Positions 32,571 to 48,320 of a stretch of 64,000 bases of DNA are shown here, one piece after another. The first letter of the stretch is position 1, and each line of letters opens with the position of its first letter. Both the position numbers and the translations under genes were made by a program. Where the stretch lies: assembly GCA_944332705.1 (NCBI GenBank), contig CALVKM010000003.1, positions 28,046 to 92,045 of the forward strand, given 5' to 3'. Below the pieces are notes generated by a model. The model ran no database searches, had not been told where the DNA came from, and worked only from the letters and a program-made list of their open reading frames with translations. This DNA comes from an uncultured Bacilli bacterium (GTDB lineage: Bacteria > Bacillota_I > Bacilli_A > RF39 > UBA660).

Positions 32571-34313
32571 ATGAAAATAACCAAGAAAAAAGTAGTTTTA
32601 TGTAGTATTATAAGTCTTATTTTAATCGGAGGTATTATTCTAGCTTATAGCCTAGGTAAGAGTGATTCTCCAACACTTGCAGAATCAAAACCTAATAAAC
32701 TCATTAACAATTCATTTCTAACATTAATGTTAGAACAAGAAGATGGAACATATCAAGAAAGTACATCAAATACATGGCCAAGTGGAAATTATGCATTTAA
32801 TGAAAGTTTAAGTAGATGTGAAAATGGTGGAGAACTAAGATGGAATAGAGAAGAAGGTATAGTAAATCTATTATCTAATAAGTCTGATGCCTGTTATGTG
32901 TACTTTGATTTATATAATGTAGTTACTATTACAAATGTACAAGCCACTAAAACAACAAATAGTGTAACATTAACAGTAACAGTAGATGCTGGAGAAAATC
33001 CAGTAGCTACATATTACTTTAGTATGGATGGAGGAAGAAGTTATGAGACAAGTACAAGTCCTAATTATACCTTTAGTGAATTAACACCAAATACAGCATA
33101 TACATTTCAAGTATATGCAGTAGATACAGAAGGTTATGAATCAAATGAAGAAACAATAGAAGTAACAACAGATAATTATGTAAATCCTGTTGTTAATAGT
33201 GTAACAGCAACAAATGTAAGTAATGATTCAATAACAGTAAGTGTAAGTGCATCTGCAGGAACAAATAATATTCAAACATATTATTATTCAATAAATAATG
33301 GAAGTTACCAAAGTAGTAGTTCAAATACCCATACTTTTAGTGGACTTTCTGCAGGAACAAACTATAGCATAAAAGTATATGTAAGAGATACTAATGGAGT
33401 AGATTCAAATGTATATTCAATAAATGCCGAAACAGAAAGTGTAGTACTACTTGCAGATTATATAAAAGGATTATATACAAGTCAAGGAGCAAATGGTTTG
33501 TATTATCATACAAGTAGTTTAGCAAATAGTGCAGCGGATAATAGTTATCGTTATGCAGGAGCAAATCCAAATAATTATGTATGTTTTGGAAGTACTGCAA
33601 GTACATGTCCGAGTGATAACCTATATCGAATAATAGGAGTATTTGGAAACCAAGTAAAATTAATCAAAGCCGATTATACAACAACAACAATGACAGGTTC
33701 AGGAGGAGACTATTACAATAATTATCAATCAGCTAATGGTTCTTCAAGCTATTATAAAGGAAGTATGAGTACAAGTAATATAGCAAGTTATTACTGGAAT
33801 AGAAGTAATGGAACAAGCTCAACAAATACATGGAGTGAATCAAGATTAAATACAACAAATTTAAATAGTTCGTATTTGAGTTATATAGGGTCAACCTGGA
33901 GTAATAAAATAGCAAGAACAACATGGTATGTAGGAGGACATTCTGGAAACGAAGTAACACCAGCAACATTCCAAGATGCGGAAAGTACAGGAACAACATA
34001 TAGTGCAAAAATAGGATTAATGTATGTATCAGATTATGGCTTTGCGGCAAGTCCAAGTGCATGGACAACAAAGATGAGTACTTATAGTAGTGCTAGGGAT
34101 AATAACTGGATGTATATGGGACTTTACGAATGGACAATTTCTCGCGACTCGTATGATTCCGATTACGCCTTCAGGGTGAACACTACGGGTTACCTGAATT
34201 TCGACCCTGTGTATAATAACTACCGCGCGGTCCGGCCAGTCTTTTATCTGACATCTTCGATAACCTATAATCGGGGAAGCGGCACAGCCGCTGATCCCGT
34301 TAGGATAAACTGA
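32571..34313 (+). CDS. DGR target: surface protein with FN3 repeats and C-terminal variable lectin-like domain (VP1)
   Basis: 580 residues. An N-terminal signal anchor (VVLCSIISLILIGGIILAYS), a Cys-containing domain to about 115, two fibronectin type III repeats (about 116-205 and 206-290), and a C-terminal domain of about 285 residues of the kind diversified by DGRs (CLec/FGE-like fold is inferred). The last 60 residues contain the variable region (523-556), followed by VRPVFYLTS and VRIN at the end. The core ANSAADNSYRYAGANPNNY and DNLYRIIGVF is shared with the proteins at 48.3 and 50.0 kb. The anchor places the variable tip outside the cell, so it is a likely ligand or adhesin display protein. 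GGGA precedes ATG 32571. Confidence 0.88.
   Translation: MKITKKKVVLCSIISLILIGGIILAYSLGKSDSPTLAESKPNKLINNSFLTLMLEQEDGTYQESTSNTWPSGNYAFNESLSRCENGGELRWNREEGIVNLLSNKSDACYVYFDLYNVVTITNVQATKTTNSVTLTVTVDAGENPVATYYFSMDGGRSYETSTSPNYTFSELTPNTAYTFQVYAVDTEGYESNEETIEVTTDNYVNPVVNSVTATNVSNDSITVSVSASAGTNNIQTYYYSINNGSYQSSSSNTHTFSGLSAGTNYSIKVYVRDTNGVDSNVYSINAETESVVLLADYIKGLYTSQGANGLYYHTSSLANSAADNSYRYAGANPNNYVCFGSTASTCPSDNLYRIIGVFGNQVKLIKADYTTTTMTGSGGDYYNNYQSANGSSSYYKGSMSTSNIASYYWNRSNGTSSTNTWSESRLNTTNLNSSYLSYIGSTWSNKIARTTWYVGGHSGNEVTPATFQDAESTGTTYSAKIGLMYVSDYGFAASPSAWTTKMSTYSSARDNNWMYMGLYEWTISRDSYDSDYAFRVNTTGYLNFDPVYNNYRAVRPVFYLTSSITYNRGSGTAADPVRIN
34136..34239 (+). repeat. DGR variable region VR1
   Basis: 104 bp near the 3' end of the VP1 gene, homologous to the template at 34534-34637 without gaps. 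They differ at 15 positions; 14 lie opposite TR adenines (of 36 A in the TR) and one opposite a TR G (AGT to TAT codon). Changes go to all three other bases, for example AAC to GAC, TAC, TTC or CGC, and AAT to GAT or ACT. This is the signature of adenine-specific mutagenic retrohoming. The segment is far more GC-rich than the rest of the gene. Confidence 0.95.
34272..34299. repeat. GC-rich hairpin inside the VP1 3' end
   Basis: CGGG-GA-AGCGGC-ACA-GCCGCT-GAT-CCCG, a perfect 6-bp plus 4-bp stem, 33 bases after the end of VR1. DGRs often need a hairpin just after the variable region for retrohoming; this is one of two candidates here. Confidence 0.6.
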
Positions 34314-34533: not shown

Positions 34534-34637
34534 AATTTCTCGCAACTCGAGTAATTCCAATAACGCCTTCAGGGTGAACAATACGGGTAACCTGAATAAC
34601 AACACTGTGTATAATAACAACAACGCGGTCCGGCCAG
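34534..34637 (+). repeat. DGR template repeat TR
   Basis: 104 bp, non-coding, with 36 adenines mostly in AAC and AAT triplets in register with VR1 codons (reading NNTGN, NNNT and NNNN in the VR frame). It ends in CGGCCAG, shared with VR1; beyond that TR and VR diverge (ACCTTTACAG against TCTTTTATCT), as expected for IMH* and IMH. It lies between the VP1 gene and the accessory genes, and would be transcribed into the RNA template copied by the RT. The surrounding 34640-34981 is rich in hairpins (for example GGAGTGTTA/TAACGCTCC and TTGATTAA/TTAATCAA), likely part of the structured template RNA. Confidence 0.93.
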
Positions 34638-34792
34638 ACCTTTACAGTTCCAGTAATATAAGATTAAGGTTTTATGATTGAGTGAAGTAAAGGACAAAGA
34701 TTATCCAGGAAAATATTCCGAACATGAAATATGGATGGAGTGTTATAAGTAACGCTCCTGTACACCATATTAAATTATTGTATTAAAATTAT

Positions 34793-34981: not shown

Positions 34982-35356
34982 TTGAATAAATATGGTGTAA
35001 GACTTTATAAGTCTGGTAAGTTTTATAATGCCTTTGGGGATGAAGGAATGATTTTGCATGAATTACTTGGTTATAAATATATTGAATATAAAAATTCTGT
35101 TGGTTTTCCAGAATCAGCAATTAATAAAGTTAAAGGTAAATTAGATAGTGTAAACATAAGTTATAGTATATATGAAAAAGATAACTTATTAGAAGAACAT
35201 AAAGGTATAGATAAAAACTATAAAATAGTTTTATCTAAAGCTTTAAAGAATTATGATATAGAAAAGAGATTAACAAGATTAAAAAGTAAAATAAATAATT
35301 TAAGTACAGAAGAATTAGAAAGAGTTATTGATAGCTTAGAGGATGGAAGCATATGA
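34982..35356 (+). CDS. DGR accessory protein with a MutS N-terminal-like domain (MSL)
   Basis: 124 residues. The segment RLYKSGKFYNAFGDEGMILHELLGY and VGFPESAINKVKGKLDS matches the pattern of MutS domain I (mismatch-recognition domain: xGxFYExFxxDA...GFPxxxLxxYxxxL). Stand-alone MutS-like proteins are one of the known accessory families of DGRs. It could bind mismatched or RNA-DNA intermediates; that is inference. The C-terminal 40 residues are coiled coil. TTG start after GGAG. It overlaps the next gene by four bases. Confidence 0.75.
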   Translation: MNKYGVRLYKSGKFYNAFGDEGMILHELLGYKYIEYKNSVGFPESAINKVKGKLDSVNISYSIYEKDNLLEEHKGIDKNYKIVLSKALKNYDIEKRLTRLKSKINNLSTEELERVIDSLEDGSI

Positions 35357-35697
35357 ATAACGATAGATTTTTAATTGTTAAAAATATTAAAAGTTTTATA
35401 ATATCTCTAGAGAATATTTTAGTTACTATTCCTAAAAAAGATTATTTATCTAGAGAACTTATTTATCAAGAAGCATTAATACTTCTTGATAATGTTATTA
35501 AAGCTAATTATGAAGTAGATAAAGATAAAAAGAAAGATTATCAAATAGTAGCTTTAGCAAAAGTAAATTTATTAGATTTCTTTTTAGAAAGGGCATATAA
35601 GCTTAAATACATTAGTGAGAAACAAGCAACAAGCAAAGCAAATGAATTATTAAAGATTAATAAGATGTTATATGCTTGGTGCATGAATGAAAGATAA
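35353..35697 (+). CDS. avd: DGR accessory variability determinant (Avd-like)
   Basis: 114 residues, all helical, predicted four-helix bundle. The C-terminal half (NLLDFFLERAYKLKYISEKQ...ELLKINKMLYAWCMNE) fits the Avd/S23-like family, whose last helices read LxxLLRLAxDLxxLS...LxEIGRMLGGW in relatives. Avd forms a basic pentamer that binds the RT and the template RNA and is needed for mutagenic retrohoming. Overlaps MSL by four bases and the RT gene by 11. Confidence 0.8.
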   Translation: MNNDRFLIVKNIKSFIISLENILVTIPKKDYLSRELIYQEALILLDNVIKANYEVDKDKKKDYQIVALAKVNLLDFFLERAYKLKYISEKQATSKANELLKINKMLYAWCMNER

Positions 35698-38660
35698 TAT
35701 AACTTTTGTTAATTTACTTAATATTTATGAACAGGAAATATCTAAGAATGTTAAGAATAAGAAAAAATTAGTTAAGTTTGAAATAAATAAAGTACAAAAT
35801 ATAACTAATATAATTGATATGTTAAATAGGGGTAAAATAGGACATGAACATTATAATATATTTTTAATATATGAACCTAAGTGTAGATTAGTAATGTCTT
35901 TAAGTGTTAGAGATAAGATAATTAATCATTTTGTTACTAGATATGCTTTAGAAGCAAAGCTTACTAAATATTTAGATTTAAGAAATGTTGCTACAAGAAA
36001 AGGCATGGGAAATGATTATGGAATAAGATTAGTAATAAAATATTTAAAAAAGTTAAAGAGTAATAAATTTTATATATTAAAAATAGATATAAGTAAATAT
36101 TTTTATTCCATAGATCATGAAGTATTAAAGAGTTTATTAATTGATAAATTAGATAGTTATGAATATGATTTAATTTGTAAGATAATAGATAGTACTAATA
36201 AAGAATATATTAATTCAACAATTAATAAAATAAAAAAAGATAATAAAGCGGAAGTACCACTTTATTATCATGGACTAGGGCTTCCGATTGGTAATATGAC
36301 AAGTCAATTTCTATCTATATTTTATTTATATAAATTAGATCACTATATCGTCCATGATTTAAAGCTTAAGTATTATGTGCGGTATATGGATGGTGCGACT
36401 GTGTAGGTCGAATAAATTAATGAGTGGAAATCTCATCTAGAAAGTAATACCCATTACATCTAGTAGCGAGTCTTGGAGCTATATTGGTAACAATATAGTT
36501 TAAGCGTAGATAGTCAGGTATTAGGGCTAGTATTGAGCTTCGAAATGTATAATTTCAAGAGCGCAGACATAATCGTCCAGATGGAATGCTATATTTAATA
36601 TTGCGATATGGGAAGTGATATTAAACTCTTGCGGAGTCTGAAAGACCTAGCCATGATATACAATGTTTATTCGATGAACAGTGAGGACCTATGTTTTCTC
36701 AGCTTAATAGAAAGACAGAAGTGCTAATATTAAGAAAAGAGAGTATGATAAACTTAAGAATATCAAAAGAAACATAGGTAGTCAGATAAACTCATAGTAC
36801 CGATGATAATATATTAATAAATATATTGGAGGGAAGGGTTTTACATAACATAGCTCTTATTAAAGCAAACATTATCACTATTCAAGGAGTGGAGAAATAA
36901 TGACAAGTAAAATAATAAGAATAAATCAAATAGTCAAAGAAAAGCCAGATGAAGTATTTACATCGGTCTATCATTTAATAAATAAAGAATTGCTAATGCA
37001 ATGTTTTGAAAAGTTAGATGGTAGTAAAGCTAGTGGGATAGATTCAGTAACTAAGGATATTTATTATATGAATTTAGATGAAAATATAAATAACTTAGTT
37101 AAACGACTCAAAAACAAGAGTTATAAACCACAACCAGCCAGAAAAGTAAAAATACCAAAAGGAAATGGAAAAATGCGAGAACTGGCAATATCAAACTTTG
37201 AAGATAAAATAGTTCAATTGGCTTTAAAGAGTATAATTGAAGCAATATTTGAACCAAAACTTAGTAATAATATGTTTGGTTTTAGACCAAGTAGAGGATG
37301 TCATGAAGCATTAAGACAAATATCTATAGATATTGAACGAAACTTTACTAACTATGTAGTAGAAGCAGATATCAAAGGATATTTTGATAACATAAATCAT
37401 GAAAATCTTATAAAATGTCTAGAGCTACATATAAAGGATAAAAACATAATTATGTTGATTAGAAAATTACTAAAAGCGGGAATACTAGAAAGTGATAACC
37501 TCTATATAGGAGATGATGGAACACCGCAAGGTTCAATATTAAGTCCAGTATTAGCCAATATATACATGTATTATGTATTAGTGAGATGGTTTGATGAGAT
37601 AGTAAGACCAAACTGTCATGGCTTTGCAAGTATAATAAATTATGCAGATGATTTTATATGTTGTTTTCAAAGAAAACAAGATGCAATAGTTTTCTATAAG
37701 AAATGGTTGCCTGAAAGATTAGCAAGGGCTAAATTAGAACTTGCCAAAGATAAAACAAGAATAATAAGTTTTGGAAGATTTGCAAAAGAAAATTGCAAAG
37801 GCAAGAAACCACAAACATTTGAATTTTTAGGTTTTGTACATTATTGTAGTACAAATAGAAATGGCAAATTTAGAGTAAAGAGGAAAACATCCAGTAAGAA
37901 ATTTACTAAGAAATTAGTAGAATTTAACGACTGGTGTAGTAGAAATAGGACCTTGGATATAGATGAACTTATGAACGCATATAAAAAGAAAGTAATAGGA
38001 CACTTCAATTACTATGGAATAACTGATAACTTTCACATGATACAGAAATATAAATTTAGAACCATGCAAATACTATTTAAATGGTTAAATAGGAGAAGTC
38101 AAAGAAAGAGTTATACATGGGAAGAATTTAATAAGTTATTAGAACAATACCAAATTCCTAAACCACGAATATGTGTAAAAATATATGACGATTGATGAAT
38201 AAATGCTATGTTATGAAGAGCCGTATGCGGGAAAGCTGCATGTACGGATCTGTGAGGGGAATATATAGTGATATATATTTCTACTCGATATTTCATTATT
38301 ATGGATAGTGATTTAGAAAAATTAAAAAAAGCAAAAGATATTATAATAGATAAATTAGATAAAAAATATAAGTTAAAAGTAAATACCAAGAAAACTAAAA
38401 TAGTCAGTTGTAGGGAAGGTTTTAGTTTTCTAGGTTATGTATTTAAAGTAATAGATAAAAGAATAGTTATAAAGATAAAAAGAAGTAATTTAGATAAAAT
38501 AAAGAAAAGAGTAAAAGAAGTAAGATATTTACTAGATAATAATAAAATAAGTCATAATAGAGCATTTTGCTCAATTATGACTTATAGTAATTGTTATAAA
38601 TATGCTAGTAATATTAAAGTATTAAAATTAATAGATAGGTATTTTTATCATGAAAAATAG
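35687..38660 (+). CDS. DGR reverse transcriptase, split by a group II intron
   Basis: Two exons, 35687-36392 and 38290-38660, join to a 358-residue RT. Exon 1 has the first catalytic Asp (ILKIDISKYF, D134) and the DGR hallmark IGNMTSQ (residues 201-207) where group II and retroviral RTs have QGxxxSP. Exon 1 ends YVRYMD plus one base; exon 2 begins AT TTC ATT, so splicing makes codon GAT and the motif YMDDFII (Y233-D236). The thumb region with FSFLGYVFKV follows. Without splicing the protein stops 14 bases into the intron (36406) and lacks the second catalytic Asp. ATG 35687 overlaps avd. So the active RT depends on intron removal. Confidence 0.92.
36900..38195 (+). CDS. ltrA: Group II intron-encoded reverse transcriptase/maturase
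   Basis: 431 residues, LtrA-type. It has RT motifs RxLAISNFEDKIVQLAL, FGFRPSRGCHEAL, the first Asp in VVEADIKGYFDNINH, PQGSILSPVLANIY and YADDFICCF (catalytic Asp pair), then the maturase X domain (FEFLGFVHYC...). After the X domain the protein ends near RICVKIYDD; no HNH endonuclease motif is seen, so it is an En-minus type which would need a nick or replication fork to insert. It should promote both splicing and mobility. AAGGAG precedes the ATG. It is clearly different from the DGR RT around it. Confidence 0.95.
   Translation: MTSKIIRINQIVKEKPDEVFTSVYHLINKELLMQCFEKLDGSKASGIDSVTKDIYYMNLDENINNLVKRLKNKSYKPQPARKVKIPKGNGKMRELAISNFEDKIVQLALKSIIEAIFEPKLSNNMFGFRPSRGCHEALRQISIDIERNFTNYVVEADIKGYFDNINHENLIKCLELHIKDKNIIMLIRKLLKAGILESDNLYIGDDGTPQGSILSPVLANIYMYYVLVRWFDEIVRPNCHGFASIINYADDFICCFQRKQDAIVFYKKWLPERLARAKLELAKDKTRIISFGRFAKENCKGKKPQTFEFLGFVHYCSTNRNGKFRVKRKTSSKKFTKKLVEFNDWCSRNRTLDIDELMNAYKKKVIGHFNYYGITDNFHMIQKYKFRTMQILFKWLNRRSQRKSYTWEEFNKLLEQYQIPKPRICVKIYDD
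38218..38289 (+). ncRNA. Intron domains V and VI
   Basis: Domain V: lower helix GAGCCGTA / TACGGATC, 2-nt bulge TG, upper helix TGCGG / CTGCA, GAAAG loop. The catalytic AGC triad is present; opposite its G there is A where most introns have U or G, and the domain has 33 nt and not the usual 34. Domain VI: GAGGG / CT-A-CTC with branch-point A38283 and the AT-rich hairpin AATATAT / ATATATT. Confidence 0.8.
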
Positions 38661-38978: not shown

Positions 38979-41900
38979 ATGAAAGTATTTTTGATTGATA
39001 ATAATAAAATAATTAAATATATACTACCATCTAAAATAGATGATTCTTTTTTGATTACTTATAATGACCCAGAAGTAAAAGATTGTTTAATTAGTTTTGA
39101 AGGTGCTAATAATAAGTGGTATTTAAAAAGTAATGGGAATGTTAATATAATTGAAAAAGGTGAAGAAGTAGATAATATTGAAGTAATAGAATATCGAAAA
39201 TATATTTTAAAGGTAGTTGGTAAGAAAAATTATTTAGAACTTTTCTTTTTGCCAAGTAAAGAAACTTTGTTTAAACTAAGTTTTAGTGGTTTAGATAGTT
39301 TTTCTGTTGGGGCTGATCCATCATGCCAAATATATTATGATTCTAGTGATTTAACTAAAGTTGAAGCAATATTTAAAGTAATTGATGGTAATTGGACAAT
39401 ATCATGTATTAATGATGATAATTATAAAGTGTTTTTAAATAATTTTAGAATAAGTGTTAAGAAATTAAAATCTGGTGATGTTATATTTATCGGTGGCCTT
39501 AAAATTGTTTGGATGAAAGAATTTATTTGTGTTAATAATCCAAGAAATTCTTTAAAGATCACGGGAATGAAGTTAATTAGTGATGATAATACTTCTAATG
39601 GGGAAATATTACCTGTTAGTGAAGATGAAAAATCAGTTGAATTATATGACAAAGATGATTATTTTGTGCATTATCCATCAATTAGAGAAACATTAGAAGA
39701 AAAAGAAGTAGTAGTAGATGCTCCCCCTAATGAAGAAAAAGATAATTCAATGCCCTTTATTTTATCAATGGGTACATCTATCATTATGTTATCTTCATCA
39801 TTTATGATGACTTATAATGTATTTTATGGTTTTTCTCAAGGAAGAACTATTTGGAATGTTTTACCTCAACTTGTAATGGGTGTATCGATGCTTATCGGGG
39901 GACTTATTATGCCTAGGATTACTAGAGCATGGCAAAAAAAACAAAAAAAGAAAAGAGAAGCTCTAAGACAAGAGAAATATAGTAAATATTTGGCTGATAA
40001 AGATAGAGAACTACAATTAATTATTAAAAATGAATTACAAATATTAAATGATAATTATTTAAATGCTGATGCTTGTTTAGTAGCATTAGATAAAAAAAAT
40101 AAAAACTTCTGGTGGCGAGAAATAGAAGATGATGCTTTTTTAGCTATTAGAGTTGGTAATGGGAAAATTGATTCTAAAGTAGAGGTTAAAGCTCCAGAAG
40201 AGCATTTTACACTTGATGAAGATAACTTATTAGAAGAATCATATAAAATAAAAGATAAGTATGATCATGTAGATGGGGCACCAGTAGTTGTATCACTTAA
40301 AACTAGTGATGTTACATCTTTAATAACAGAAGTAAATAATAAAGATTCTTATATTAATGAACTTGTTTTACAATTAATAATTTTACATAGTAGCCTAGAT
40401 TTAAAACTTGTTTTAATGACTAAAGAAGAAAATATGAGCAGATGGGAATTTATGAAGTATTTGCCTCATATATTCTCGGAAGATAAAAGTATTAGATTCT
40501 TTGGTACAAATGAAAAAGAATGGAAAAATATATCAAATTTCTTGGAAGAAGAATTAAAAAGAAGAAAAGAAATAGCTGGTGATAATTCTGATAAAGGATA
40601 TGTAGGAATACCATATTATTTAATTATTACAGATGATTATAAGAATACAAAATCTATTCAAATAATTGATGACTTAGTAAATAAAAATGGTGGAATGTAT
40701 AGTTTTTCTTTACTTATTCTCGAAGATAACATTAAAAATGTACCATCTAATAGTAAAACATTTATTGAAGTTCGTGGTAAAGATGGTGTAGTTATTGAAA
40801 AAAGTACTGGTTTAAATAAACAATCAATATTTTATTTAGATAAGATAAATAATGATATTGATATGAACAGTATTGCTAAAAGACTTGCTGATATTCCTGT
40901 TATGAGTAAAGAAGGAGCATCAGTTCTTCCAACAAGCCTTAAGTTTCTAGATATGTTTGGAGTATCTAAAATCGAACAATTAAATATACTTAATCGTTGG
41001 CAAACTAATAATCCTGTAGTTTCACTTGACACTGTCATTGGTGTTCATCCAAATGGCGATAAATTTACATTAGACTTACATGAAAAGTTTCAAGGGCCTC
41101 ATGGTTTAATTGCAGGTTCTACTGGTTCTGGTAAATCAGAATTCATTATTACTTATATTTTATCAATGGCGATTAATTATCACCCATATGAAGTCCAATT
41201 TGTTTTAATTGACTATAAAGGTGGTGGCTTAGCTGGAGCTTTCGAAAATAAAGAAACTGGCATTAAAATTCCCCATTTAGCAGGTACTATAACTAACCTT
41301 GATACTCATGAAATGAACCGTAGTTTAGTATCTATTCAAAGTGAACTAAAAAGGCGCCAAAGGATATTTAATGAAGTAAGAGAATCTTTAGGTGAAGGAA
41401 CAATAGATATTTATAAATATCAAAAGTTATATAGAGAAGGTGTAGTTAAAACACCATTATCGCATTTATTCATCATCTGCGATGAATTCGCGGAATTAAA
41501 ACAACAACAACCGGATTTTATGCAAGAGTTAATTTCTACATCGCGGATTGGACGTTCCCTAGGTATTCATTTAATACTTGCAACTCAAAAACCAAGTGGG
41601 GTTGTAAATGATCAAATTTGGGCAAACTCTAGATTTAAAGTGTGCTTGAGAGTTCAAGAAAAATCAGATAGTATGGAAATGCTAAAACGCCCTGAAGCGG
41701 CTTCAATTAAAGAAACAGGTAGATTTTACTTACAAGTTGGTTATGATGAATTATTTGAAATTGGTCAAAGTGGATGGAGTGGAGCAAAATACACTCCAAG
41801 TGATAAAATTCAAAAGAAAATTGATGAATCAATAAATTATATAGATAATACTGGTTATGTTATAAAAAGTATTAAAGATATTGATCCAAATGAAGTAAAT

Positions 41901-43535
41901 GTTAAAGATTATGGTGATGAACTTACTAATGTAGTTAAATATATTTATGATTTAGGAAATAAAGAACAAATAGCGACTACTAAATTATGGCTTGATTCTA
42001 TACCAGAAGTTATTTATATTAGTAATTTAAAGAAAAAATACAATTATACACCAGAAAGTTACTATATTAATCCTGTTATTGGTGAATATGATGATCCAAT
42101 AAATCAAGTTCAAGGACTATTAACTGTTGACTTATCAAGAGTTGGTAATTTAGTTATATATGGTATACCTGGTAGTGGTAAAGAAAACCTAGTTACTAAT
42201 GTCATTCGTTCAAGTATTGTTGAGCACACTCCTGATGAAGTAAATATTTATATTCTTGATTGTGGTTCAGAGTCTCTTAAGATATTTAATTCATTTCCTC
42301 ATGTTGGTGATGTTTTAACAATTGATTCCGAAGAAAAAATTACAGATTTAGTTACAATGATTTCTAGTGAAATTGAAAGAAGAAAAGATTTATTTACGGA
42401 ATACGCCGGAAGTTATAATGATTATATTAAAAATAGTGGAAATAAATTACCACTTATGCTTATTGTCATTAATAATTATGATGTATTTAATGAAACTTAT
42501 TCTACTGTTGCTGATAGCTTGCAATCCCTATTTAGAGATGGCTATAAATATGGTGTAGTATTTGTTGTAAGTTGTATTAGTGTTAATGCTATAAAAACAA
42601 GAAGTGTATCATATTTTAACAATAAAATATGTTTACATCTAAATGATCCTATGGATTATCGCTCTATTTTAGCATCTCCAAGAGATTTAACGCCATCTGA
42701 TTATTTTGGACGAGGTCTTGCTGTAGTTTCGGGAAGAGTTTTAGAATTCCAATCAGCATTATTTGCACCAAGAAAAGATTATACCAACTCTTTAAGAGAA
42801 CTAGCAAATACTCTAAATAACGCTTATACAACTAAAGCTAGTAAAATTCCATCAGTACCAGATATAGTAGGTGTTGATAGTTTAATAGAAAAAGTTGAAA
42901 GTAAATTACTTATTCCAATTGGTTATAACATTCGTAATAAACAAATTAATTATTATAACTTTAAAATTAATAATATCATTCCAATAGCATTTAGTCAAAC
43001 CGACAACATTAAGTTATCTTTCGTAAAATCTATAGCTAAAATTATAGCTAAAGTAGCTACAATTAATATCCTTGATTTATCAAATACATTCAAAGAAAGT
43101 ACTAATAATTTAAATTTATCTAATAAAGATAATTGTATAGAATTTATTGATAAATTAAAAGAAGAAGTAACTACTGATACATATTATTTGTTAATAGGTA
43201 TGGCAAATATAAATAATTTAATTGACAAAGACTCTTATAAGGAACTTATAAATTTGTTAACTAACCAAAGTAGTGATACATTAAAACATATTATTGTAGT
43301 TGGTTCAACTGAAGTAATAAAAACCCTTAAAGCGGAAAGTTGGTTTAAAAATAATGTTAGTGATAAAAGCTATATTTGGTTAGGGGATGATATAGCTAAT
43401 CAATTTGTTTTAAGTCCACCGAATATTCCATTTGAACAAAAGAAAATTAATTTTGAATATATGGGCTTTGCTATTTATAAAGGTAGTTATGAAATAATTA
43501 AATATGTAATAGATAAGGGGGATTTAGATGAATAA
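38979..43535 (+). CDS. essC: Type VIIb secretion ATPase EssC
   Basis: 1518 residues. N-terminal FHA-like domains (about 1-190; SVGADPSCQIYYDSSD), two membrane spans at about 260-315 (FILSMGTSIIMLSSSFMM and VLPQLVMGVSMLIGGLIM), then three FtsK/SpoIIIE-type domains. D1 is complete: Walker A GSTGSGKS (K719) and Walker B FIICDEF (D835, E836). D2 has GIPGSGKE (K1068), where the Ser/Thr after Lys is Glu, and a weak Walker B (LIVINNYD). D3 has no Walker A. This is the usual EssC layout, with D1 as the motor. It is the only T7SS core ATPase seen and overlaps esaB by eight bases. Confidence 0.93.
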   Translation: MKVFLIDNNKIIKYILPSKIDDSFLITYNDPEVKDCLISFEGANNKWYLKSNGNVNIIEKGEEVDNIEVIEYRKYILKVVGKKNYLELFFLPSKETLFKLSFSGLDSFSVGADPSCQIYYDSSDLTKVEAIFKVIDGNWTISCINDDNYKVFLNNFRISVKKLKSGDVIFIGGLKIVWMKEFICVNNPRNSLKITGMKLISDDNTSNGEILPVSEDEKSVELYDKDDYFVHYPSIRETLEEKEVVVDAPPNEEKDNSMPFILSMGTSIIMLSSSFMMTYNVFYGFSQGRTIWNVLPQLVMGVSMLIGGLIMPRITRAWQKKQKKKREALRQEKYSKYLADKDRELQLIIKNELQILNDNYLNADACLVALDKKNKNFWWREIEDDAFLAIRVGNGKIDSKVEVKAPEEHFTLDEDNLLEESYKIKDKYDHVDGAPVVVSLKTSDVTSLITEVNNKDSYINELVLQLIILHSSLDLKLVLMTKEENMSRWEFMKYLPHIFSEDKSIRFFGTNEKEWKNISNFLEEELKRRKEIAGDNSDKGYVGIPYYLIITDDYKNTKSIQIIDDLVNKNGGMYSFSLLILEDNIKNVPSNSKTFIEVRGKDGVVIEKSTGLNKQSIFYLDKINNDIDMNSIAKRLADIPVMSKEGASVLPTSLKFLDMFGVSKIEQLNILNRWQTNNPVVSLDTVIGVHPNGDKFTLDLHEKFQGPHGLIAGSTGSGKSEFIITYILSMAINYHPYEVQFVLIDYKGGGLAGAFENKETGIKIPHLAGTITNLDTHEMNRSLVSIQSELKRRQRIFNEVRESLGEGTIDIYKYQKLYREGVVKTPLSHLFIICDEFAELKQQQPDFMQELISTSRIGRSLGIHLILATQKPSGVVNDQIWANSRFKVCLRVQEKSDSMEMLKRPEAASIKETGRFYLQVGYDELFEIGQSGWSGAKYTPSDKIQKKIDESINYIDNTGYVIKSIKDIDPNEVNVKDYGDELTNVVKYIYDLGNKEQIATTKLWLDSIPEVIYISNLKKKYNYTPESYYINPVIGEYDDPINQVQGLLTVDLSRVGNLVIYGIPGSGKENLVTNVIRSSIVEHTPDEVNIYILDCGSESLKIFNSFPHVGDVLTIDSEEKITDLVTMISSEIERRKDLFTEYAGSYNDYIKNSGNKLPLMLIVINNYDVFNETYSTVADSLQSLFRDGYKYGVVFVVSCISVNAIKTRSVSYFNNKICLHLNDPMDYRSILASPRDLTPSDYFGRGLAVVSGRVLEFQSALFAPRKDYTNSLRELANTLNNAYTTKASKIPSVPDIVGVDSLIEKVESKLLIPIGYNIRNKQINYYNFKINNIIPIAFSQTDNIKLSFVKSIAKIIAKVATINILDLSNTFKESTNNLNLSNKDNCIEFIDKLKEEVTTDTYYLLIGMANINNLIDKDSYKELINLLTNQSSDTLKHIIVVGSTEVIKTLKAESWFKNNVSDKSYIWLGDDIANQFVLSPPNIPFEQKKINFEYMGFAIYKGSYEIIKYVIDKGDLDE

Positions 43536-43782
43536 TAAAGTTTTAGTAAAAGTATTAATACCTGAAATAGATGAAGTTTATGATGTATTTATTCCAATAA
43601 ATATTAGGATAGGGATGGTTATAAAACTTTTAAATGAATCATTAAGTGAAGTATCTAATGGGCTTTATGTGGTTAAGAATAACCGTAAAATATATAATAC
43701 AGTAGATGCTAATCCTTATCCTTTTAATAAATTGGTAAGAGAAACTAATATTAGAAACGGAACTACAGTAGTATTTATGTAA
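43528..43782 (+). CDS. esaB: EsaB/YukD-like ubiquitin-fold protein
   Basis: 84 residues (VKVLIPEIDEVYDVFIPINIRIG...LVRETNIRNGTTVVFM), matching the small ubiquitin-like EsaB/YukD proteins of type VIIb loci, which regulate or assist secretion. It overlaps the end of essC. The genes for EsaA, EssA and EssB are not seen in this window. Confidence 0.8.
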   Translation: MNNKVLVKVLIPEIDEVYDVFIPINIRIGMVIKLLNESLSEVSNGLYVVKNNRKIYNTVDANPYPFNKLVRETNIRNGTTVVFM

Positions 43783-43810
43783 AAATTTATGTAAAATTTT
43801 GTAAAATGCC

Positions 43811-43839
43811 TTGCTATTAAATAAAATGTTTGATAGAAT
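43811..43839 (+). promoter_or_regulatory. Promoter of the first WXG100 set
   Basis: TTGCTA (43811-43816), 17-bp spacer, TAGAAT (43834-43839), 27 bases before the first small gene. Confidence 0.55.
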
Positions 43840-43865
43840 TATGTTAAAGATAAGGAGTGATGAAC

Positions 43866-44150
43866 TTGGCTACATTAGAAGTAGGAAATACAACTTTTGT
43901 TAAGAATAATATGGCTAGTTTAATACAAGTCAATCAAAGTATTTTAGATTCTTGTGAAAAATTAAATGAATCATTAGGACAAATTAAAAGTCATTGGCGG
44001 AGTGAAGGAGCGAGCGATAATACTGATTATATTACTAAGTTAAATGAAAACATTGAAAAAATGTATAGCTTAACTTATATTATCAGTGATTTAGCAGAAC
44101 ATGTAAATAAATACATAGATGATGCAACTGCTGCTAGCAATAATATTTAA
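43866..44150 (+). CDS. WXG100-like small secreted protein, set A gene 1
   Basis: 94 residues, helical hairpin size, with SHWRSEG at the turn in place of a strict WxG. TTG 43866 is chosen: AAGGAG (43852-43857) is eight bases upstream, while the ATG at 43860 would be too close. The length then equals that of the set B gene at 45846, its closest counterpart by position and by features. Such proteins are exported as helical dimers by EssC. Both sets share the same order of four genes. Confidence 0.75.
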   Translation: MATLEVGNTTFVKNNMASLIQVNQSILDSCEKLNESLGQIKSHWRSEGASDNTDYITKLNENIEKMYSLTYIISDLAEHVNKYIDDATAASNNI

Positions 44151-44164
44151 AGGATGGTGATAAA

Positions 44165-44470
44165 ATGACAGCAGAACAAATATCTTCAGAACTTGAAACA
44201 ATTCAAATAAGTCCAAATGAAGCTAAAGAATACTGTTCAGAATTAATCAGTAATGCAAGTAAAATAGAAAGTGTTAAACAATCTCTCAATTTTATTGCAG
44301 GAACTGATTTGCCAAACATTTGGCAAGGCCAAAATTCCGATGTTAATTCAATAATTACTGAGTTAAATGAAAATGTCGAATTTTTAGATAATTTGATTAG
44401 ATTTACTAGAGAATTTGCAACAACTCTTCAAGATTATGCTACAGCAATGGAAAGTAATGCTAGTAAGTAA
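44165..44470 (+). CDS. WXG100 protein, set A gene 2
   Basis: 101 residues with a clear WxG turn (LPNIWQGQNSD) between two helices, the best WXG100 signature in this locus. Probable EsxA-like substrate or core component of the secretion system. SD GGATGGTGA before ATG 44165. Its counterpart in set B is at 46141. Confidence 0.85.
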   Translation: MTAEQISSELETIQISPNEAKEYCSELISNASKIESVKQSLNFIAGTDLPNIWQGQNSDVNSIITELNENVEFLDNLIRFTREFATTLQDYATAMESNASK

Positions 44471-44481
44471 GGAGGATAATA

Positions 44482-44829
44482 ATGATTAGTATTGAAAGTT
44501 TCGAAAGAATTAGAGAATTAATAAATAGAATAGTCGATTTAAAAGAACAATTAGCGGGAGCTTTTAATGAAAATAGAGAGATGTACTCAGGTATTCAAAG
44601 TGCAATAAAGGTTGATGGCTTATCTTCAATTATTACAGAGTTTTCTAATAGTATATATAATCAAAATGGAGATATTCAAAGAAATCTTGATACTCTTTTT
44701 GAATTTTTAAGTAATCAAGTTAAAGAATATGAAGAACTAAATCAAAATGCTGAGACAAGATTTCAAACTACTCAAGGTCAACTTGATAGTGTAGTTAGTG
44801 ATACTTCAAGTGATTTAGGCCAAATATAG
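44482..44829 (+). CDS. WXG100-like helical protein, set A gene 3
   Basis: 115 residues, all helical, no WxG. The last third (LFEFLSNQVKEYEELNQNAETRFQTTQGQLDS) has the same pattern as the set B protein at 46450 (LFDSVDAFLTNQINAYTEANTTAGDNLTHLQGML). Strong SD AAGGAGGATAATA. Likely an Esx partner protein of the system. Confidence 0.75.
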   Translation: MISIESFERIRELINRIVDLKEQLAGAFNENREMYSGIQSAIKVDGLSSIITEFSNSIYNQNGDIQRNLDTLFEFLSNQVKEYEELNQNAETRFQTTQGQLDSVVSDTSSDLGQI

Positions 44830-44844
44830 TAAGGAGTTGTGTTT

Positions 44845-45774
44845 ATGTTTATAGATTTAGATCCGAATGAGTTAAAGAAAATTAGCATTGATATTGAAGG
44901 ATATGATGATGCATTAAATAATGATTATTTTCCTAATGCTTTACAATATGTATCAGATTTAATTGCTAATACAAATGGCATTAAAACAGAGGAAGTAGTA
45001 AGCATTTTAAGAAGTATTTATGATAAATTAATATTTTATAGTGATGATATAAAAAGTAATTTAAATGGTTTAGAAGAACAAATTGCAGAATCTCTAGAAG
45101 CTTATAGAATTAGTACGGAAGACGCCAGAGAAAAATTAGCTCAATTATTCTTAGTTATGCAAGAGTTTGTTAAGAGTGGAAAAATTGATATGTCTATAGT
45201 TAGTTCTGATGGTTATATGACTGAAGATACTGGCGAAGAACTAACTTCAAATGATACAACAGCTCAAGAACAAGCTGATTTAAATTTGGATAGTGATTTT
45301 AAAAAATATTTAGAAGAAAAAGGTGAATGGCAAGATTATTTAAAAGAACTTAATAGTCCTTATGCCCCAAAAAATACAGATCATTTTGTTAATGAATATA
45401 TTAATCAATTTGATGGAGTATTAAACGATGAAACTAAACCATTATTAAAAGAGTTTTATGACGATTTGACTTACTACTACCACATTGATAGTGAAGCTCC
45501 TGGTTCACCATTTGATAATCTTGATGCGTTTTTAGCAAGTGAAGACGGTCAAAAATGGGCAAAATACATGCCATCTGAAGATTATGTGAGAGATTTCTCT
45601 GAAATATTAAGCAATCCTGAAGCGGCATTAACAGATTATTTATATATGAGGGGTGTTGAAAATTCTCCAAAGGGGTATTTTTTAAGTTCTGATTATAATA
45701 GTTATATTTCTGAATTACAGGGGGATGTTAGAAGTAAAATAAATTATGAACTTTCTGATAGTTATAAAACATAA
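44845..45774 (+). CDS. Large Esx-like protein with C-terminal extension, set A gene 4
   Basis: 309 residues. The first about 130 residues are helical and align with the whole 135-residue set B protein at 46786 (MFIDLDPNELKKIS against MFVNLDIETLKAIS). After an acidic, Thr-rich linker (TEDTGEELTSNDTTAQEQ) comes a further domain of about 160 residues, unknown, rich in Tyr and Asp (DYLKELNSPYAP, YYYHIDSEAPG). So it has the plan of an LXG-like effector: an Esx targeting part and a cargo domain. No immunity gene or known toxin motif is recognised. ATG 44845 chosen, SD AAGGAG. Confidence 0.7.
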   Translation: MFIDLDPNELKKISIDIEGYDDALNNDYFPNALQYVSDLIANTNGIKTEEVVSILRSIYDKLIFYSDDIKSNLNGLEEQIAESLEAYRISTEDAREKLAQLFLVMQEFVKSGKIDMSIVSSDGYMTEDTGEELTSNDTTAQEQADLNLDSDFKKYLEEKGEWQDYLKELNSPYAPKNTDHFVNEYINQFDGVLNDETKPLLKEFYDDLTYYYHIDSEAPGSPFDNLDAFLASEDGQKWAKYMPSEDYVRDFSEILSNPEAALTDYLYMRGVENSPKGYFLSSDYNSYISELQGDVRSKINYELSDSYKT

Positions 45775-45790
45775 TAATTTTCAAAATCAA

Positions 45791-45820
45791 TTGACGAGTT
45801 AACTATAAATATGGTAAAAT
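45791..45820 (+). promoter_or_regulatory. Promoter of the second WXG100 set
   Basis: TTGACG (45791-45796), 18-bp spacer, TAAAAT (45815-45820). It gives set B its own transcription start. Confidence 0.65.
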
Positions 45821-45845
45821 TTATATATAATAAGGAGGATATTAA

Positions 45846-46130
45846 GTGAATTTAGATATTAGAAATCCAGAACAAGTTATAAGTGATAGTAGTGAGCTCT
45901 TAGCTCTTGCTAGTAAAATTGAAGGTGAAGTAAGCAATTTACAAGCCCAAAAAGCAAAAATTGAAGGTAGTTGGACAAGTGATACAACAGATAGAGAATC
46001 TACTGTTGCAGGTTTAACTAAAAATATTAATAATTTAAATGCTTTAGTTGCGGGTATTAGAAAAGTTGCTAATGATGCCTCATACTATGCGGAACGTAGT
46101 ATAGAAATTTCTAGAAATCAAATAAATTAA
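45846..46130 (+). CDS. WXG100-like small protein, set B gene 1
   Basis: 94 residues with IEGSWTSDTTD at the turn of the helical hairpin, a near-WxG. GTG start with TAAGGAGGAT upstream. Counterpart of the set A gene at 43866. It heads the second four-gene set. Confidence 0.78.
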   Translation: MNLDIRNPEQVISDSSELLALASKIEGEVSNLQAQKAKIEGSWTSDTTDRESTVAGLTKNINNLNALVAGIRKVANDASYYAERSIEISRNQIN

Positions 46131-46140
46131 GGAGGAAATT

Positions 46141-46440
46141 ATGAATTTTACAATTAATAACACAAGTGAAGTTAAAAATTTAGCTAATGAACTTATTGAT
46201 AATGGAGCAAATATTAATAATATTGTTCAAGAATTAACAACTATTTTAACAACTTTTTCTTCATCTTGGGAAGAAAGTCAAAGAGATGCTCAAGCATTTA
46301 GAACTCAGTTACAAAGCGAAGTAGATTTTGCAACTAAATCAACAAATGTTAATAATGCTTTTGCTAATTCATTAATAAGTTATATTGATTTTATTGAAAA
46401 AACTGGAAGTACTTCTGCTAGTACTAATGGTTCTATTTAG
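46141..46440 (+). CDS. WXG100-like small protein, set B gene 2
   Basis: 99 residues, helical hairpin with SSSWEESQRDA at the turn. Strong SD AAGGAGG. Counterpart of 44165. The tail is Ser/Thr-rich (TGSTSASTNGS). Confidence 0.78.
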   Translation: MNFTINNTSEVKNLANELIDNGANINNIVQELTTILTTFSSSWEESQRDAQAFRTQLQSEVDFATKSTNVNNAFANSLISYIDFIEKTGSTSASTNGSI

Positions 46441-46449
46441 GGAGGAATT

Positions 46450-46770
46450 ATGGATAATACAATTAGATTTAATATAGATGAAGTTAAAAGAATACAGACA
46501 GAACTTGTAGAAATAAAAACACAACTTAGAAATAAATATGATAATGATGCTAGAATCATCAATGATATTGCTGCTAATATAAAGAGTAGTGAATTTAGTG
46601 CTACTATTCAAAATTATATAACTGCTAATGAAACTAAAAGTACACAAATAATAACATTATTTGATTCTGTTGATGCGTTTTTAACTAATCAAATTAATGC
46701 ATATACTGAAGCTAATACTACTGCTGGAGATAATTTAACACATCTTCAAGGTATGTTAGATAATTTATAG
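46450..46770 (+). CDS. Esx-like helical protein, set B gene 3
   Basis: 106 residues, helical, no WxG. Similar in pattern to 44482, including the TNQINAYTEAN segment near the end. SD GGGAGGA. Probable partner within the secreted complex. Confidence 0.72.
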   Translation: MDNTIRFNIDEVKRIQTELVEIKTQLRNKYDNDARIINDIAANIKSSEFSATIQNYITANETKSTQIITLFDSVDAFLTNQINAYTEANTTAGDNLTHLQGMLDNL

Positions 46771-46785
46771 AAAGGATGATTATAA

Positions 46786-47193
46786 ATGTTTGTTAATTTA
46801 GATATTGAGACACTTAAAGCAATAAGTAGAGAAATTGATTCAACTAATAGCACTTTAGTTGGAAGTTTATATCCACAAGTGAGGAATGCCTTAGTTAGTA
46901 TTAATGAAAATATTAAAACAAGTGGTCTTACAGCATTACTTAATTCTTGTGTTGATGTAATTGATGAAACAAGTCAAACCTTGGGTAAGAATATTACTAA
47001 TTTAAATGCATTTTTAGATAGTCAAATGCGGGCATACCAACAAACACTAGAAGAAATGGTAGGTAATATTAGAACATCTGTTAATCATATGGAAGAATTA
47101 ATATCACAAATGAGTGGTGTTAATAGATTGGAAGTTAATACTACTAGATTAGGTAGTGTATATCAAACTTTAGCAAGTAATGGAGGTATTTAG
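46786..47193 (+). CDS. Esx-like helical protein, set B gene 4
   Basis: 135 residues, all helical. It equals the N-terminal domain of the larger set A protein at 44845 but has no C-terminal extension. SD AAAGGATG. Its stop is one base before the start of the next gene. Confidence 0.72.
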   Translation: MFVNLDIETLKAISREIDSTNSTLVGSLYPQVRNALVSINENIKTSGLTALLNSCVDVIDETSQTLGKNITNLNAFLDSQMRAYQQTLEEMVGNIRTSVNHMEELISQMSGVNRLEVNTTRLGSVYQTLASNGGI

Positions 47194-47194
47194 T

Positions 47195-47539
47195 ATGGAT
47201 CAAAATGTAGAAATGCAATTTAATTCAATAGTACAACTTCTTATTGATGGTTATTTAAGGAAAAAAAATCGCCCTAAAATGGCTGATATTATGAAAAGCC
47301 AAAATAAAGAAGAACAAAAAGGTGTACTTACCGAAGATCATATAAAATTAATTCAACAAATGATTCAAGAAGAGGCTTCTGCTATTGGGGTTAATGTATC
47401 TGATGAAGTAAGAAAAAGCGGTGAAGAATATATAATTGGTAAGTTATCTAATGTAGAAAGACAATATTTATATGTATTAGTAGATGATATGCTAGGTGTA
47501 CTTGATGTAATAAATGAAAGGCAAAGCGCCAAAGCATAA
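47195..47539 (+). CDS. Unknown T7SS-linked protein
   Basis: 114 residues, soluble, charged and helical (MDQNVEMQFNSIVQLLIDGYL...VLVDDMLGVLDVINERQ). No family recognised. ATG 47195 with GGAGG upstream. It sits between the Esx sets and the DUF4176 gene, so a role as chaperone or accessory of secretion is plausible but unproven. Confidence 0.6.
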   Translation: MDQNVEMQFNSIVQLLIDGYLRKKNRPKMADIMKSQNKEEQKGVLTEDHIKLIQQMIQEEASAIGVNVSDEVRKSGEEYIIGKLSNVERQYLYVLVDDMLGVLDVINERQSAKA

Positions 47540-47559
47540 AATAGAAAAGGGTGAGACTT

Positions 47560-48216
47560 GTGAAAGATAAATATTTACCAATAGGTAGTATTGTAACAAT
47601 TAATGAAACAAATAAAAACATTATGATTGTAGGATACTATGCTATAAAGTATCAAAATGTTGTTAAAATGTATGATTATGTAGGAATAAGTTATCCAGAA
47701 GGTTCTTTACTTGATGCTTCTTTTGCTTTCAATCATGCCGATATAACTAATATTTTATTTGAAGGCTATAAGGATGATTCATTTAATGTTTTAAATAAAA
47801 ATATGTTGGGTCAAAACGAAAATAAGAGCATTGATGCTAAAAAAGATAGCAATTTTGTTAATGTAAAATATGATGCTAATGGTGTTGTTCAATATGATGA
47901 ATTTGAAGACAAAAGTGTTGATAAGTTAGTTGAATTATTAAATGAAGATATAAAAAATCCTTTTGAAGCTCAAGTATCTCAAGAAAAGATTCCTGATGCT
48001 ATTCCTGTTGTGGAAGAACAAGCAAGTGCTAGTCCGGTAAATCCTGAAGCTCGTGATGATACACAAAGCATAATTGATAATTTGAATGCTATTTTGGAAG
48101 AAAATAAACAAGATAGTAATACAAATAATAAAGATGATGCTATTAAGCTAGATGAAGTAAATATAGATTTACCTACATATAAATTTACCGAAGATGGCAT
48201 TATTATAAATGAATAA
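47560..48216 (+). CDS. DUF4176-type T7SS accessory protein
   Basis: 218 residues. The N-terminal part (VKDKYLPIGSIVTINETNKNIMIVGYY...YDYVGISYPEG) matches DUF4176, a domain common in type VIIb loci of Firmicutes. The C-terminal 110 residues are acidic and likely disordered with short helices. GTG 47560 is chosen since AAAGGGTGAG lies just upstream. A strong terminator follows and ends the locus. Confidence 0.8.
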   Translation: MKDKYLPIGSIVTINETNKNIMIVGYYAIKYQNVVKMYDYVGISYPEGSLLDASFAFNHADITNILFEGYKDDSFNVLNKNMLGQNENKSIDAKKDSNFVNVKYDANGVVQYDEFEDKSVDKLVELLNEDIKNPFEAQVSQEKIPDAIPVVEEQASASPVNPEARDDTQSIIDNLNAILEENKQDSNTNNKDDAIKLDEVNIDLPTYKFTEDGIIINE

Positions 48217-48240: not shown

Positions 48241-48320
48241 TATAAATAATAAAAAAAGACTATGTCTTTTTTTTAATTTATGTTATACTAATTATAGTAA
48301 TGAATAGTAGGGTGAAACGA

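What the first reader, a model, noticed from the sequence alone, without database searches (positions are those of the whole stretch)
35687..38660. Group II intron inserted exactly in the catalytic YMDD codons of a DGR reverse transcriptase
Seen: exon 1 ends TAT ATG GAT G, then GTGCGACT...; domain V, domain VI with bulged A38283, intron end AT at 38289; exon 2 starts AT TTC ATT ATT. Joining gives YMDDFII in one open frame of 358 residues. Known: unspliced, the RT would lack its second catalytic Asp. Inference: DGR activity depends on splicing, helped by the intron's own maturase, so one RT controls the birth of another RT's active site. It could act as an on/off switch or as addiction of the intron to a conserved target.
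Basis: partly seen in the sequence, partly recalled or inferred. Interest (0 to 1): 0.95.

Follow-up and report, generated by a model that had tools for sequence, protein, structure and literature searches.

The report
Intron targeting hypermutator enzyme's catalytic codon
A group II intron (an RNA element of a kind known to copy itself into DNA) sits inside the codon for a catalytic amino acid of a bacterium's DNA-mutating reverse transcriptase, and its near relatives sit at exactly the same codon in distantly related versions of that enzyme, so it is likely a parasite specialised on a target the host cannot easily change, and the enzyme would work only after the intron is spliced out of the RNA.

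Summary
Exon 1 (35687-36392) ends TAT ATG GAT G, a group II intron with its own RT/maturase follows (36393-38289, 1897 nt), and exon 2 (38290-38660) restores YMDDFII in a 358-aa frame. The gene belongs to a DGR: SQ motif, Avd-like gene, TR/VR pair with 15 of 17 mismatches at TR adenines.

Nine genomic loci carry introns of one clade at YMD|D of different DGR-type RT genes, and 15 of 360 listed RT relatives end in the intron read-through YMDGATV. Two of these introns are 99.1% identical while their host exons are 51-55% identical. The introns form one clade (98/98); on a quick RT tree their hosts need 19 changes, about as many as shuffled labels. By covariation, the guide bases (EBS1, EBS3) read TGGATG|A, wholly within the Met-Asp-Asp codons.

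Best reading: a homing lineage specialised on DGR-RT catalytic codons, removed by splicing. Splicing, homing and any switch function were not tested. The closest precedent is Ll.LtrB in relaxase catalytic motifs; a DGR reverse transcriptase as target was not found in eight searches of an open-access library.

The parts
32571..34313 (+). DGR target (variable) protein gene, 580 aa, Fn3 domains, VR near its C-terminal end
   Evidence: ORF; Pfam fn3; contains the VR
34136..34246 (+). variable repeat (VR)
   Evidence: 85% to TR; 15 of 17 mismatches fall on TR adenines, p 9e-7
34534..34644 (+). template repeat (TR)
34982..35356 (+). accessory ORF, MutS domain I-like
   Evidence: PF01624 E 1.5e-4, 22.4 bits over cut-off 20.6; role in the DGR inferred only
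35353..35697 (+). Avd-like accessory protein
   Evidence: NF033474 DivGenRetAVD E 2e-8, 34.5 bits (curated cut-off 80 not reached); phrog_3206 'Avd protein of DGR' E 1.1e-8
35687..36392 (+). DGR RT exon 1 (235 codons plus first base of the second catalytic Asp codon)
   Evidence: SQ motif IGNMTSQ
36387..36392 (+). IBS1 (TGGATG), inside the Met-Asp-Asp codons
   Evidence: pairs 6/6 with EBS1; register found by covariation over 23 introns
36393..38289 (+). group II intron
   Evidence: Rfam, fold, boundaries shared with the relatives
36574..36579 (+). EBS1 (CGTCCA), guide to IBS1
   Evidence: 124 of 138 possible pairs over 23 introns; next best column 92
36639..36639 (+). EBS3 (T), guide to the first base of exon 2
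   Evidence: Watson-Crick match in 17 of 18 introns; next best column 15 of 18
36900..38195 (+). intron-encoded protein, 431 aa RT/maturase; no endonuclease domain among its Pfam hits
   Evidence: TIGR04416 323.4 bits over cut-off 300; Pfam RVT_1 and GIIM only
38216..38289 (+). domains V and VI, unpaired (branch-point type) A38283
   Evidence: RF00029; fold
38290..38660 (+). DGR RT exon 2; its first base A is IBS3

Best explanation
Group II introns of a single clade sit at one and the same position, YMD|D, in nine different DGR-type reverse-transcriptase genes, and they likely get there by retrohoming and are predicted to splice out so that only spliced RNA would make an active RT. Shown: the site, the ribozyme core and open maturase frame, the repeated occupation of the same codon in far-diverged RT genes, and the covarying EBS1-IBS1 and EBS3-IBS3 positions that read TGGATG|A, that is Met-Asp-Asp coding bases. 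Inferred: (1) the spliced lariat with its own RT reverse-splices into empty YMDD codons; (2) because each paired base except the third base of GAT is fixed by the catalytic motif, and because EBS1 usually has a G there that pairs with T or C, the host RT can hardly mutate away without losing activity; (3) forward splicing restores the 358-aa RT, which with Avd mutagenises VR from TR. The maturase's own YADD is coded by bases that pair only 4 of 6 with EBS1, so the intron would spare its own RT.
For: Nine loci with clade introns at YMD|D: window, L038, L040, L041, L042, L043 (both boundaries), L039 and L116 (5' boundary), L059 (3' boundary). Seven of them came from a scan with the maturase, not with the site. 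Intron versus exon identity: L042/L043 99.1% versus 55.0 and 50.7%; window/L038 99.7% versus 92.2 and 89.2%. Maturase tree: the 8 YMDD-site rows of 30 are one side of a branch, 98/98. RT exon-1 tree: 22 intron-bearing of 92 rows need 19 changes, at least 11 forced by starred branches; shuffled labels 20.1 on average, 150 of 500 as low. 15 of 360 listed RT relatives end in YMDGATV. EBS1 covariation 124/138, next best column 92; EBS3 17 of 18, next best 15. EBS1 pairs 6/6 with GAT and with GAC, 4/6 with its own YADD site. TR/VR mismatches at adenines in 5 of 7 intron-bearing loci scanned: window 15/17, L039 11/11, L041 17/18, L042 7/8, L043 19/23. Exon 2 open in 6 of 7 loci where it can be read. 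dN/dS window-L038: exon 2 0.15, exon 1 0.31.
Against: No RNA or mobility data. The VR changes and the exon-2 selection may largely predate the insertions (the window intron differs from L038's at only 6 of 1897 bases). In L043 exon 2 is broken after 38 codons, so at least one intron-bearing RT looks dead. The intron is rare: 5 of 385 order genomes. Unoccupied YMDD sites remain in the same genome (contig C17, L004; contig C52, L006), so homing is not saturating. No EBS2 column was found (best 68% of pairs), and the EBS3 column beats the next one only by 17 to 15. The target sites read have GAT at the synonymous position (22 of 22 intact YMDD sites), so tolerance of GAC is untested. The TR/VR script kept only repeats with at least 75% of mismatches at one letter, so those counts are selected, and it found none in L038 and L040, whose contigs end close upstream; the window pair was also found without that filter. 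The RT tree is a quick one, 40 of 86 inner branches open, with long branches flagged (L039, L116, P0226, L040 among them).
Confidence: 0.85

Rival explanations
1. The intron is a regulator that serves the host: splicing efficiency, or attack of the excised intron on the spliced RT mRNA, sets how often the DGR mutates its target, so the intron is a throttle or switch for hypermutation.
For: Precedent: Ll.LtrB lowers relaxase mRNA through exon-binding sequences and spliced-exon reopening (PMC6003770, passages). The excised intron would have EBS1/EBS3 complementary to the joined exons.
Against: Scattered distribution on the RT tree and high intron identity across far-diverged hosts look like invasion, not retained regulation; most listed relatives lack it (334 of 360 have intact [YF]MDD).
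Confidence: 0.08
2. The intron no longer splices well enough; the interrupted RT is inactive and the cassette is retired, or served in trans by another DGR RT of the same genome.
For: The genome holds other, uninterrupted DGR-like RTs (L004, L005, L006). L043 has a broken exon 2. That a DGR RT can serve a template elsewhere in the genome is recalled, not tested.
Against: Ribozyme domains and maturase are complete in the window; exon 2 is open in 6 of 7 loci where it can be read; zero to two non-adenine mismatches in four of the five TR/VR pairs. The sibling L005 has YMND, so it would be a poor helper, though L004 and L006 have YMDD.
Confidence: 0.15
3. Assembly artefact or chance insertion with no site preference.
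For: The window lies in an assembly of 81 contigs, completeness 84%, contamination 5%.
Against: The same junction occurs in nine loci of nine different assemblies and in 15 protein clusters, one of which (P0121) is the L041 gene.
Confidence: 0.01

Closest known systems
Ll.LtrB / Ef.PcfG group II introns in relaxase genes (Lactococcus, Enterococcus)
   Same: A bacterial group II intron that homes into a conserved catalytic motif (histidine motif) of another mobile element's enzyme; nearly identical introns (99.7%) between more diverged exons (61-72%) (PMC5072309, passages).
   Different: There the target is a relaxase; here it is the catalytic motif of a reverse transcriptase that makes targeted mutations. 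Here host exons range down to about 51% identity, and the maturase shows no endonuclease domain among its Pfam hits.
Group I introns and inteins in conserved sites
   Same: Choice of a functionally fixed site that makes escape and imprecise loss costly (PMC2814812, passages).
   Different: That survey found no preference of group II introns for conserved sites (combined p 0.49), so this lineage behaves unlike the group II introns surveyed there.
Diversity-generating retroelements (Bordetella BPP-1 type)
   Same: RT with the (I/V/L)GxxxSQ motif, Avd-like protein, TR/VR with adenine-specific differences; best solved-structure match of P0001 is 8ub7, 'Reverse transcriptase', E 2.9e-23 (that this is the BPP-1 enzyme is recalled).
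   Different: RT gene split by an intron in its YMDD codons. YMDD>SMAA active-site mutations are among the variants tested for BPP-1 (PMC12875486, passage).
Nested mobile introns and twintrons
   Same: One splicing element inside a gene of another mobile element; a group II intron inside a reading frame of a group I intron is described (PMC4801052, seen only in the search listing).
   Different: Here the interrupted enzyme is a DGR RT, and the site recurs across far-diverged RT genes.

Membership tests
mobile group II intron | catalytic RNA core (domain I and D5-D6) | tested here: met
   RF02005 140.6 bits and RF00029 55.8 bits, full model length
mobile group II intron | branch-point A unpaired in domain VI | tested here: met
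   A38283 unpaired in the minimum-energy fold; use as branch point not tested
mobile group II intron | intron-encoded RT/maturase | tested here: met
   TIGR04416 323.4 bits over cut-off 300; GIIM 23.2 bits over cut-off 23
mobile group II intron | EBS-IBS pairing with the flanking exons | tested here: met
   EBS1 and EBS3 by covariation; EBS2 not found
mobile group II intron | splicing and retrohoming | not testable with these tools
   inferred
diversity-generating retroelement | SQ motif in RT domain 4 | tested here: met
   IGNMTSQ; 22 of 22 intron-bearing RTs with readable exon 1 have [IVL]GxxxSQ (motif from PMC3521204, passages)
diversity-generating retroelement | TR/VR pair with adenine-specific differences | tested here: met
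   15 of 17 at TR adenines, p 9e-7
diversity-generating retroelement | Avd accessory protein | tested here: inconclusive
   matches NF033474 and phrog_3206 at about 1e-8 but below NCBI's curated cut-off
diversity-generating retroelement | mutagenic retrohoming in the cell | not testable with these tools
   no wet data
class C (terminator-seeking) group II intron | insertion at a transcription terminator motif (definition from PMC4424553, passages) | tested here: not met
   insertion is inside the coding YMDD motif in the nine loci; the RNA class was not otherwise determined

The most novel reading that the evidence does not exclude
A parasite of hypermutation: a group II intron lineage whose RNA guide is the antisense of a catalytic motif (Met-Asp-Asp), with a wobble-proof base at the one synonymous position, so it can enter any YMDD reverse transcriptase and its host cannot escape by silent mutation; once excised, the ribozyme can reopen the spliced RT mRNA and so sets the rate at which the bacterium diversifies its target protein, one RT governing another's active site.
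Probability: 0.2. Interest if true: 0.92.

Novelty: new variant of a known kind. Interest (0 to 1): 0.77.

Why it matters
It would be one retroelement specialised on the catalytic heart of another. It gives a natural series of empty and occupied sites for asking how group II introns choose and hold a target, against a survey that found no taste for conserved sites in group II introns (PMC2814812). Genome annotation and DGR surveys that require an uninterrupted RT gene would record such loci as truncated or dead. Its guide, which reads a protein motif at the DNA level across a synonymous codon position, would be a model for motif-level targeting.

Tried and rejected
Phage carriage: 18 viral contigs stretches match TAYATGGAYGGTGCGAC, but 0 of 18 show an RT frame before the match; 13 of 18 share one frame that looks terminase-like (by eye). 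A scan of viral contigs with the maturase gave two distant hits, 26-27% identity.

EBS2: searched over seven exon offsets in 19 introns; no column stands out.

EBS1 alignment: the script mis-set the start of L050 by 5 bases, and L047 and L065 align badly in this part; all three stayed in the count of 138 and lower it.

Co-conversion: window and L038 are identical from -43 to +4 around the insertion, with many mismatches beyond; suggestive only.

Relaxed selection on exon 2 after insertion: not seen, but the test is weak because the insertions look recent.

Loci dropped from the count of nine: L063, L065 and L070 have maturases 65-69% identical over partial or broken frames but fall outside the YMDD-site clade and sit at other sites. 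L010, L011, L105, L106, L112, L114 and L115 are the same contigs as L038, L040 or L041. I asked whether L116 (5' part) and L059 (3' part) could be two ends of one insertion: the genome of L116 holds no further maturase match (the tool warns that an empty answer alone shows nothing), so I count them apart.

Literature: eight searches of the held open-access library and passages of eight papers. No paper describing a group II intron in a DGR RT was found; the library holds no preprints and lacks most subscription journals.
Full report
Observation. Exon 1, 35687-36392, ends with TAT ATG GAT G; the intron runs from GTGCGACT (36393) to TACTCGAT (38289), 1897 nt; exon 2, 38290-38660, starts AT TTC ATT ATT. 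Joined, the exons are one frame of 358 codons with YMDDFIIMD. Unspliced, the ribosome would read YMD-GATV-stop, losing the second catalytic Asp and all that follows. Rfam finds the ribozyme core (RF02005, 140.6 bits) and domains V-VI (RF00029, 55.8 bits), both over the full model. The D5-D6 stretch folds with z = -5.33 and leaves A38283 unpaired. The intron's own protein (36900-38195, 431 aa) passes the curated cut-off of the group II RT/maturase model, with RVT_1 and the maturase domain but no endonuclease domain among its Pfam hits.

The host gene is a DGR RT. It carries IGNMTSQ, the SQ motif that characterises DGR RTs (PMC3521204, passages), while the maturase has QGSILSP and YADD. An Avd-like gene overlaps its 5' end (below NCBI's curated cut-off). 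A repeat pair found without any bias filter lies upstream: VR 34136-34246 near the end of a 580-aa Fn3 protein and TR 34534-34644. They differ at 17 positions, 15 of them adenines in TR (38 of 111 TR bases are A; p 9e-7). The best solved-structure match of the intact relative P0001 is 8ub7, 'Reverse transcriptase', E 2.9e-23.

It is not a single event. A scan of the species-genome collection (84,980 species; contigs under 3,000 bases not held) with the maturase, blind to the insertion site, gave 65 loci. Six with full-length maturase at 65-100% identity (L038-L043) and one fragment (L059) sit at YMD|D of RT genes; three partial or broken ones at 65-69% (L063, L065, L070) do not. A site-pattern search of 385 genomes of the order found 5, one of them new, L116. 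The intron's first 27 bases, searched with up to 2 mismatches, occurred in 4 of 386 family genomes and in 1 of 395 class genomes, the latter the window's own; by their coordinates these places are the known YMDD sites. So nine loci are known: six with both boundaries, L039 and L116 with the 5' one, L059 with the 3' one. Three protein searches, each listing the best 120 hits (of 3161, 1642 and 5015), hold 15 proteins ending exactly in YMDGATV (P0121 among them is the L041 gene), 334 with intact [YF]MDD and 11 others. Of 146 relatives' genomes, 44 have a match to the RT at E 1e-20; three of those (G000, G019, G063) carry the interrupted form.

Intron and host genes have different histories. L042 and L043 introns are 99.1% identical over 1920 nt, while their exons are 55.0% and 50.7% identical; window and L038 introns are 99.7% identical against 92.2% and 89.2%. 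In the maturase tree the 8 YMDD-site rows of 30 are one side of a branch with support 98/98 (three other rows were broken frames with stops as X, and L063 and L070 are under half filled). In a quick tree of 92 RT exon-1 proteins (22 intron-bearing ones, 70 sampled from the intact ones) the label needs 19 changes, at least 11 forced by starred branches; shuffled labels need 20.1 on average and 150 of 500 shuffles are as low (40 of 86 inner branches open, long branches flagged). Intron presence is thus not clustered on the RT tree: one intron lineage, many hosts.

How it finds the site. Over an alignment of 23 introns of this and the sister lineages, one register pairs with the last six exon bases, whatever those are: 124 of 138 possible pairs, the next best column reaching 92. 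This EBS1 is CGTCCA at 36574-36579 in the window; in the 7 YMDD-site introns that hold this part it is CGTCC or, in L040, CATCC, and pairs 6/6 with TGGATG. A second column, 36639, matches the first base of exon 2 in 17 of 18 introns, the next best column 15, which fits EBS3. Together they read TGGATG|A: bases 2-3 of ATG, GAT, and the first two bases of the second Asp codon. Only the third base of GAT could change silently, and there six of seven introns hold a G, which pairs with T and C; the hexamer scores 6/6 against both, 4/6 against the maturase's own YADD site and 5/6 against YMND. The intact YMDD sites I read in relatives have GAT there (22 of 22), so the tolerance is a prediction. No EBS2 was found. 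Sister introns outside the clade carry other EBS1s and sit elsewhere, two of them (L046, L070) after near-identical bases, in L046 within an open frame that looks like a nicotinate nucleotidyltransferase (gene name recalled).

Does the interrupted RT still work? Of seven intron-bearing loci scanned, five hold TR/VR pairs with mismatches mostly at TR adenines: window 15/17, L039 11/11, L041 17/18, L042 7/8, L043 19/23; none was found in L038 and L040, whose contigs end close upstream (that script listed only repeats with at least 75% of mismatches at one letter). Exon 2 is open in 6 of 7 loci where it can be read; in L043 it stops after 38 codons. Exon 2 of window and L038 differs with dN/dS 0.15, exon 1 0.31. 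All this fits a working spliced RT, but the introns look young (6 differences in 1897 bases), so mutagenesis and selection before insertion, or another RT in trans, are not excluded. A sibling RT of the genome (L005) has YMND where YMDD should be, yet its cassette shows 19 of 19 mismatches at one letter, which would fit help in trans or recent loss.

What is known. [quoted passage not shown] Excised Ll.LtrB lowers relaxase mRNA through its exon-binding sequences (PMC6003770, passages), which is the ground for the throttle reading. [quoted passage not shown] this lineage is an exception to that. The large DGR survey PMC8144416 has the word intron once, for RTs added to its tree (passages). Eight searches of the held library found no group II intron in a DGR RT.

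Verdict. What raises it is the repeated, lineage-specific occupation of one catalytic codon across far-diverged RT genes and a guide that lies wholly inside that motif. Splicing, homing and regulation remain predictions.

Noticed in passing
L005 / L107 (G000 contig C8): A sibling DGR RT of the same genome (89% identical to exon 1 as P0017) has YMND instead of YMDD, though its TR/VR pair differs at 19 of 19 positions of one letter; possibly an inactive RT served in trans, or a costly escape from the intron.
   Followed up: partly
L046 and L070: Sister introns sit after near-identical 5' exon bases (AAAATAATCG / AAAATAACCG); in L046 this is inside an open frame resembling a nicotinate nucleotidyltransferase (name recalled): perhaps a second codon-targeting lineage.
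   Followed up: partly
L052, L053, L063, L065: Another group of related introns shares the 5' exon TTACAATT, with a matching EBS1 in three of the four.
   Followed up: no
window 34982-35356: MutS domain I-like ORF inside the DGR cassette; an upstream ORF of L040 (208 on) looks similar by eye.
   Followed up: no
window 38979-48216: A 1518-aa FtsK/SpoIIIE protein resembling EssC, followed by many about 100-aa proteins, looks like a type VII secretion cluster directly beside the DGR (T7SS naming recalled).
   Followed up: no
window 48300-49841 and 50025-51221: Two genes with stretches similar to the DGR target gene but without a TR-like match (best 46 of 111 bases).
   Followed up: partly
P0054: A 245-aa RT relative (23 member sequences) ends RYMDYFR, i.e. 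broken at the same place in another way.
   Followed up: no
window / L038 / L135 RT genes: Synonymous divergence differs strongly between exon 1 and exon 2 (window-L135 dS 0.32 versus 0.09; window-L038 0.19 versus 0.43), suggesting recombination among RT genes.
   Followed up: no
G109: Twelve equal-scoring copies of a group II RT (34% identical to this maturase) in one genome.
   Followed up: no
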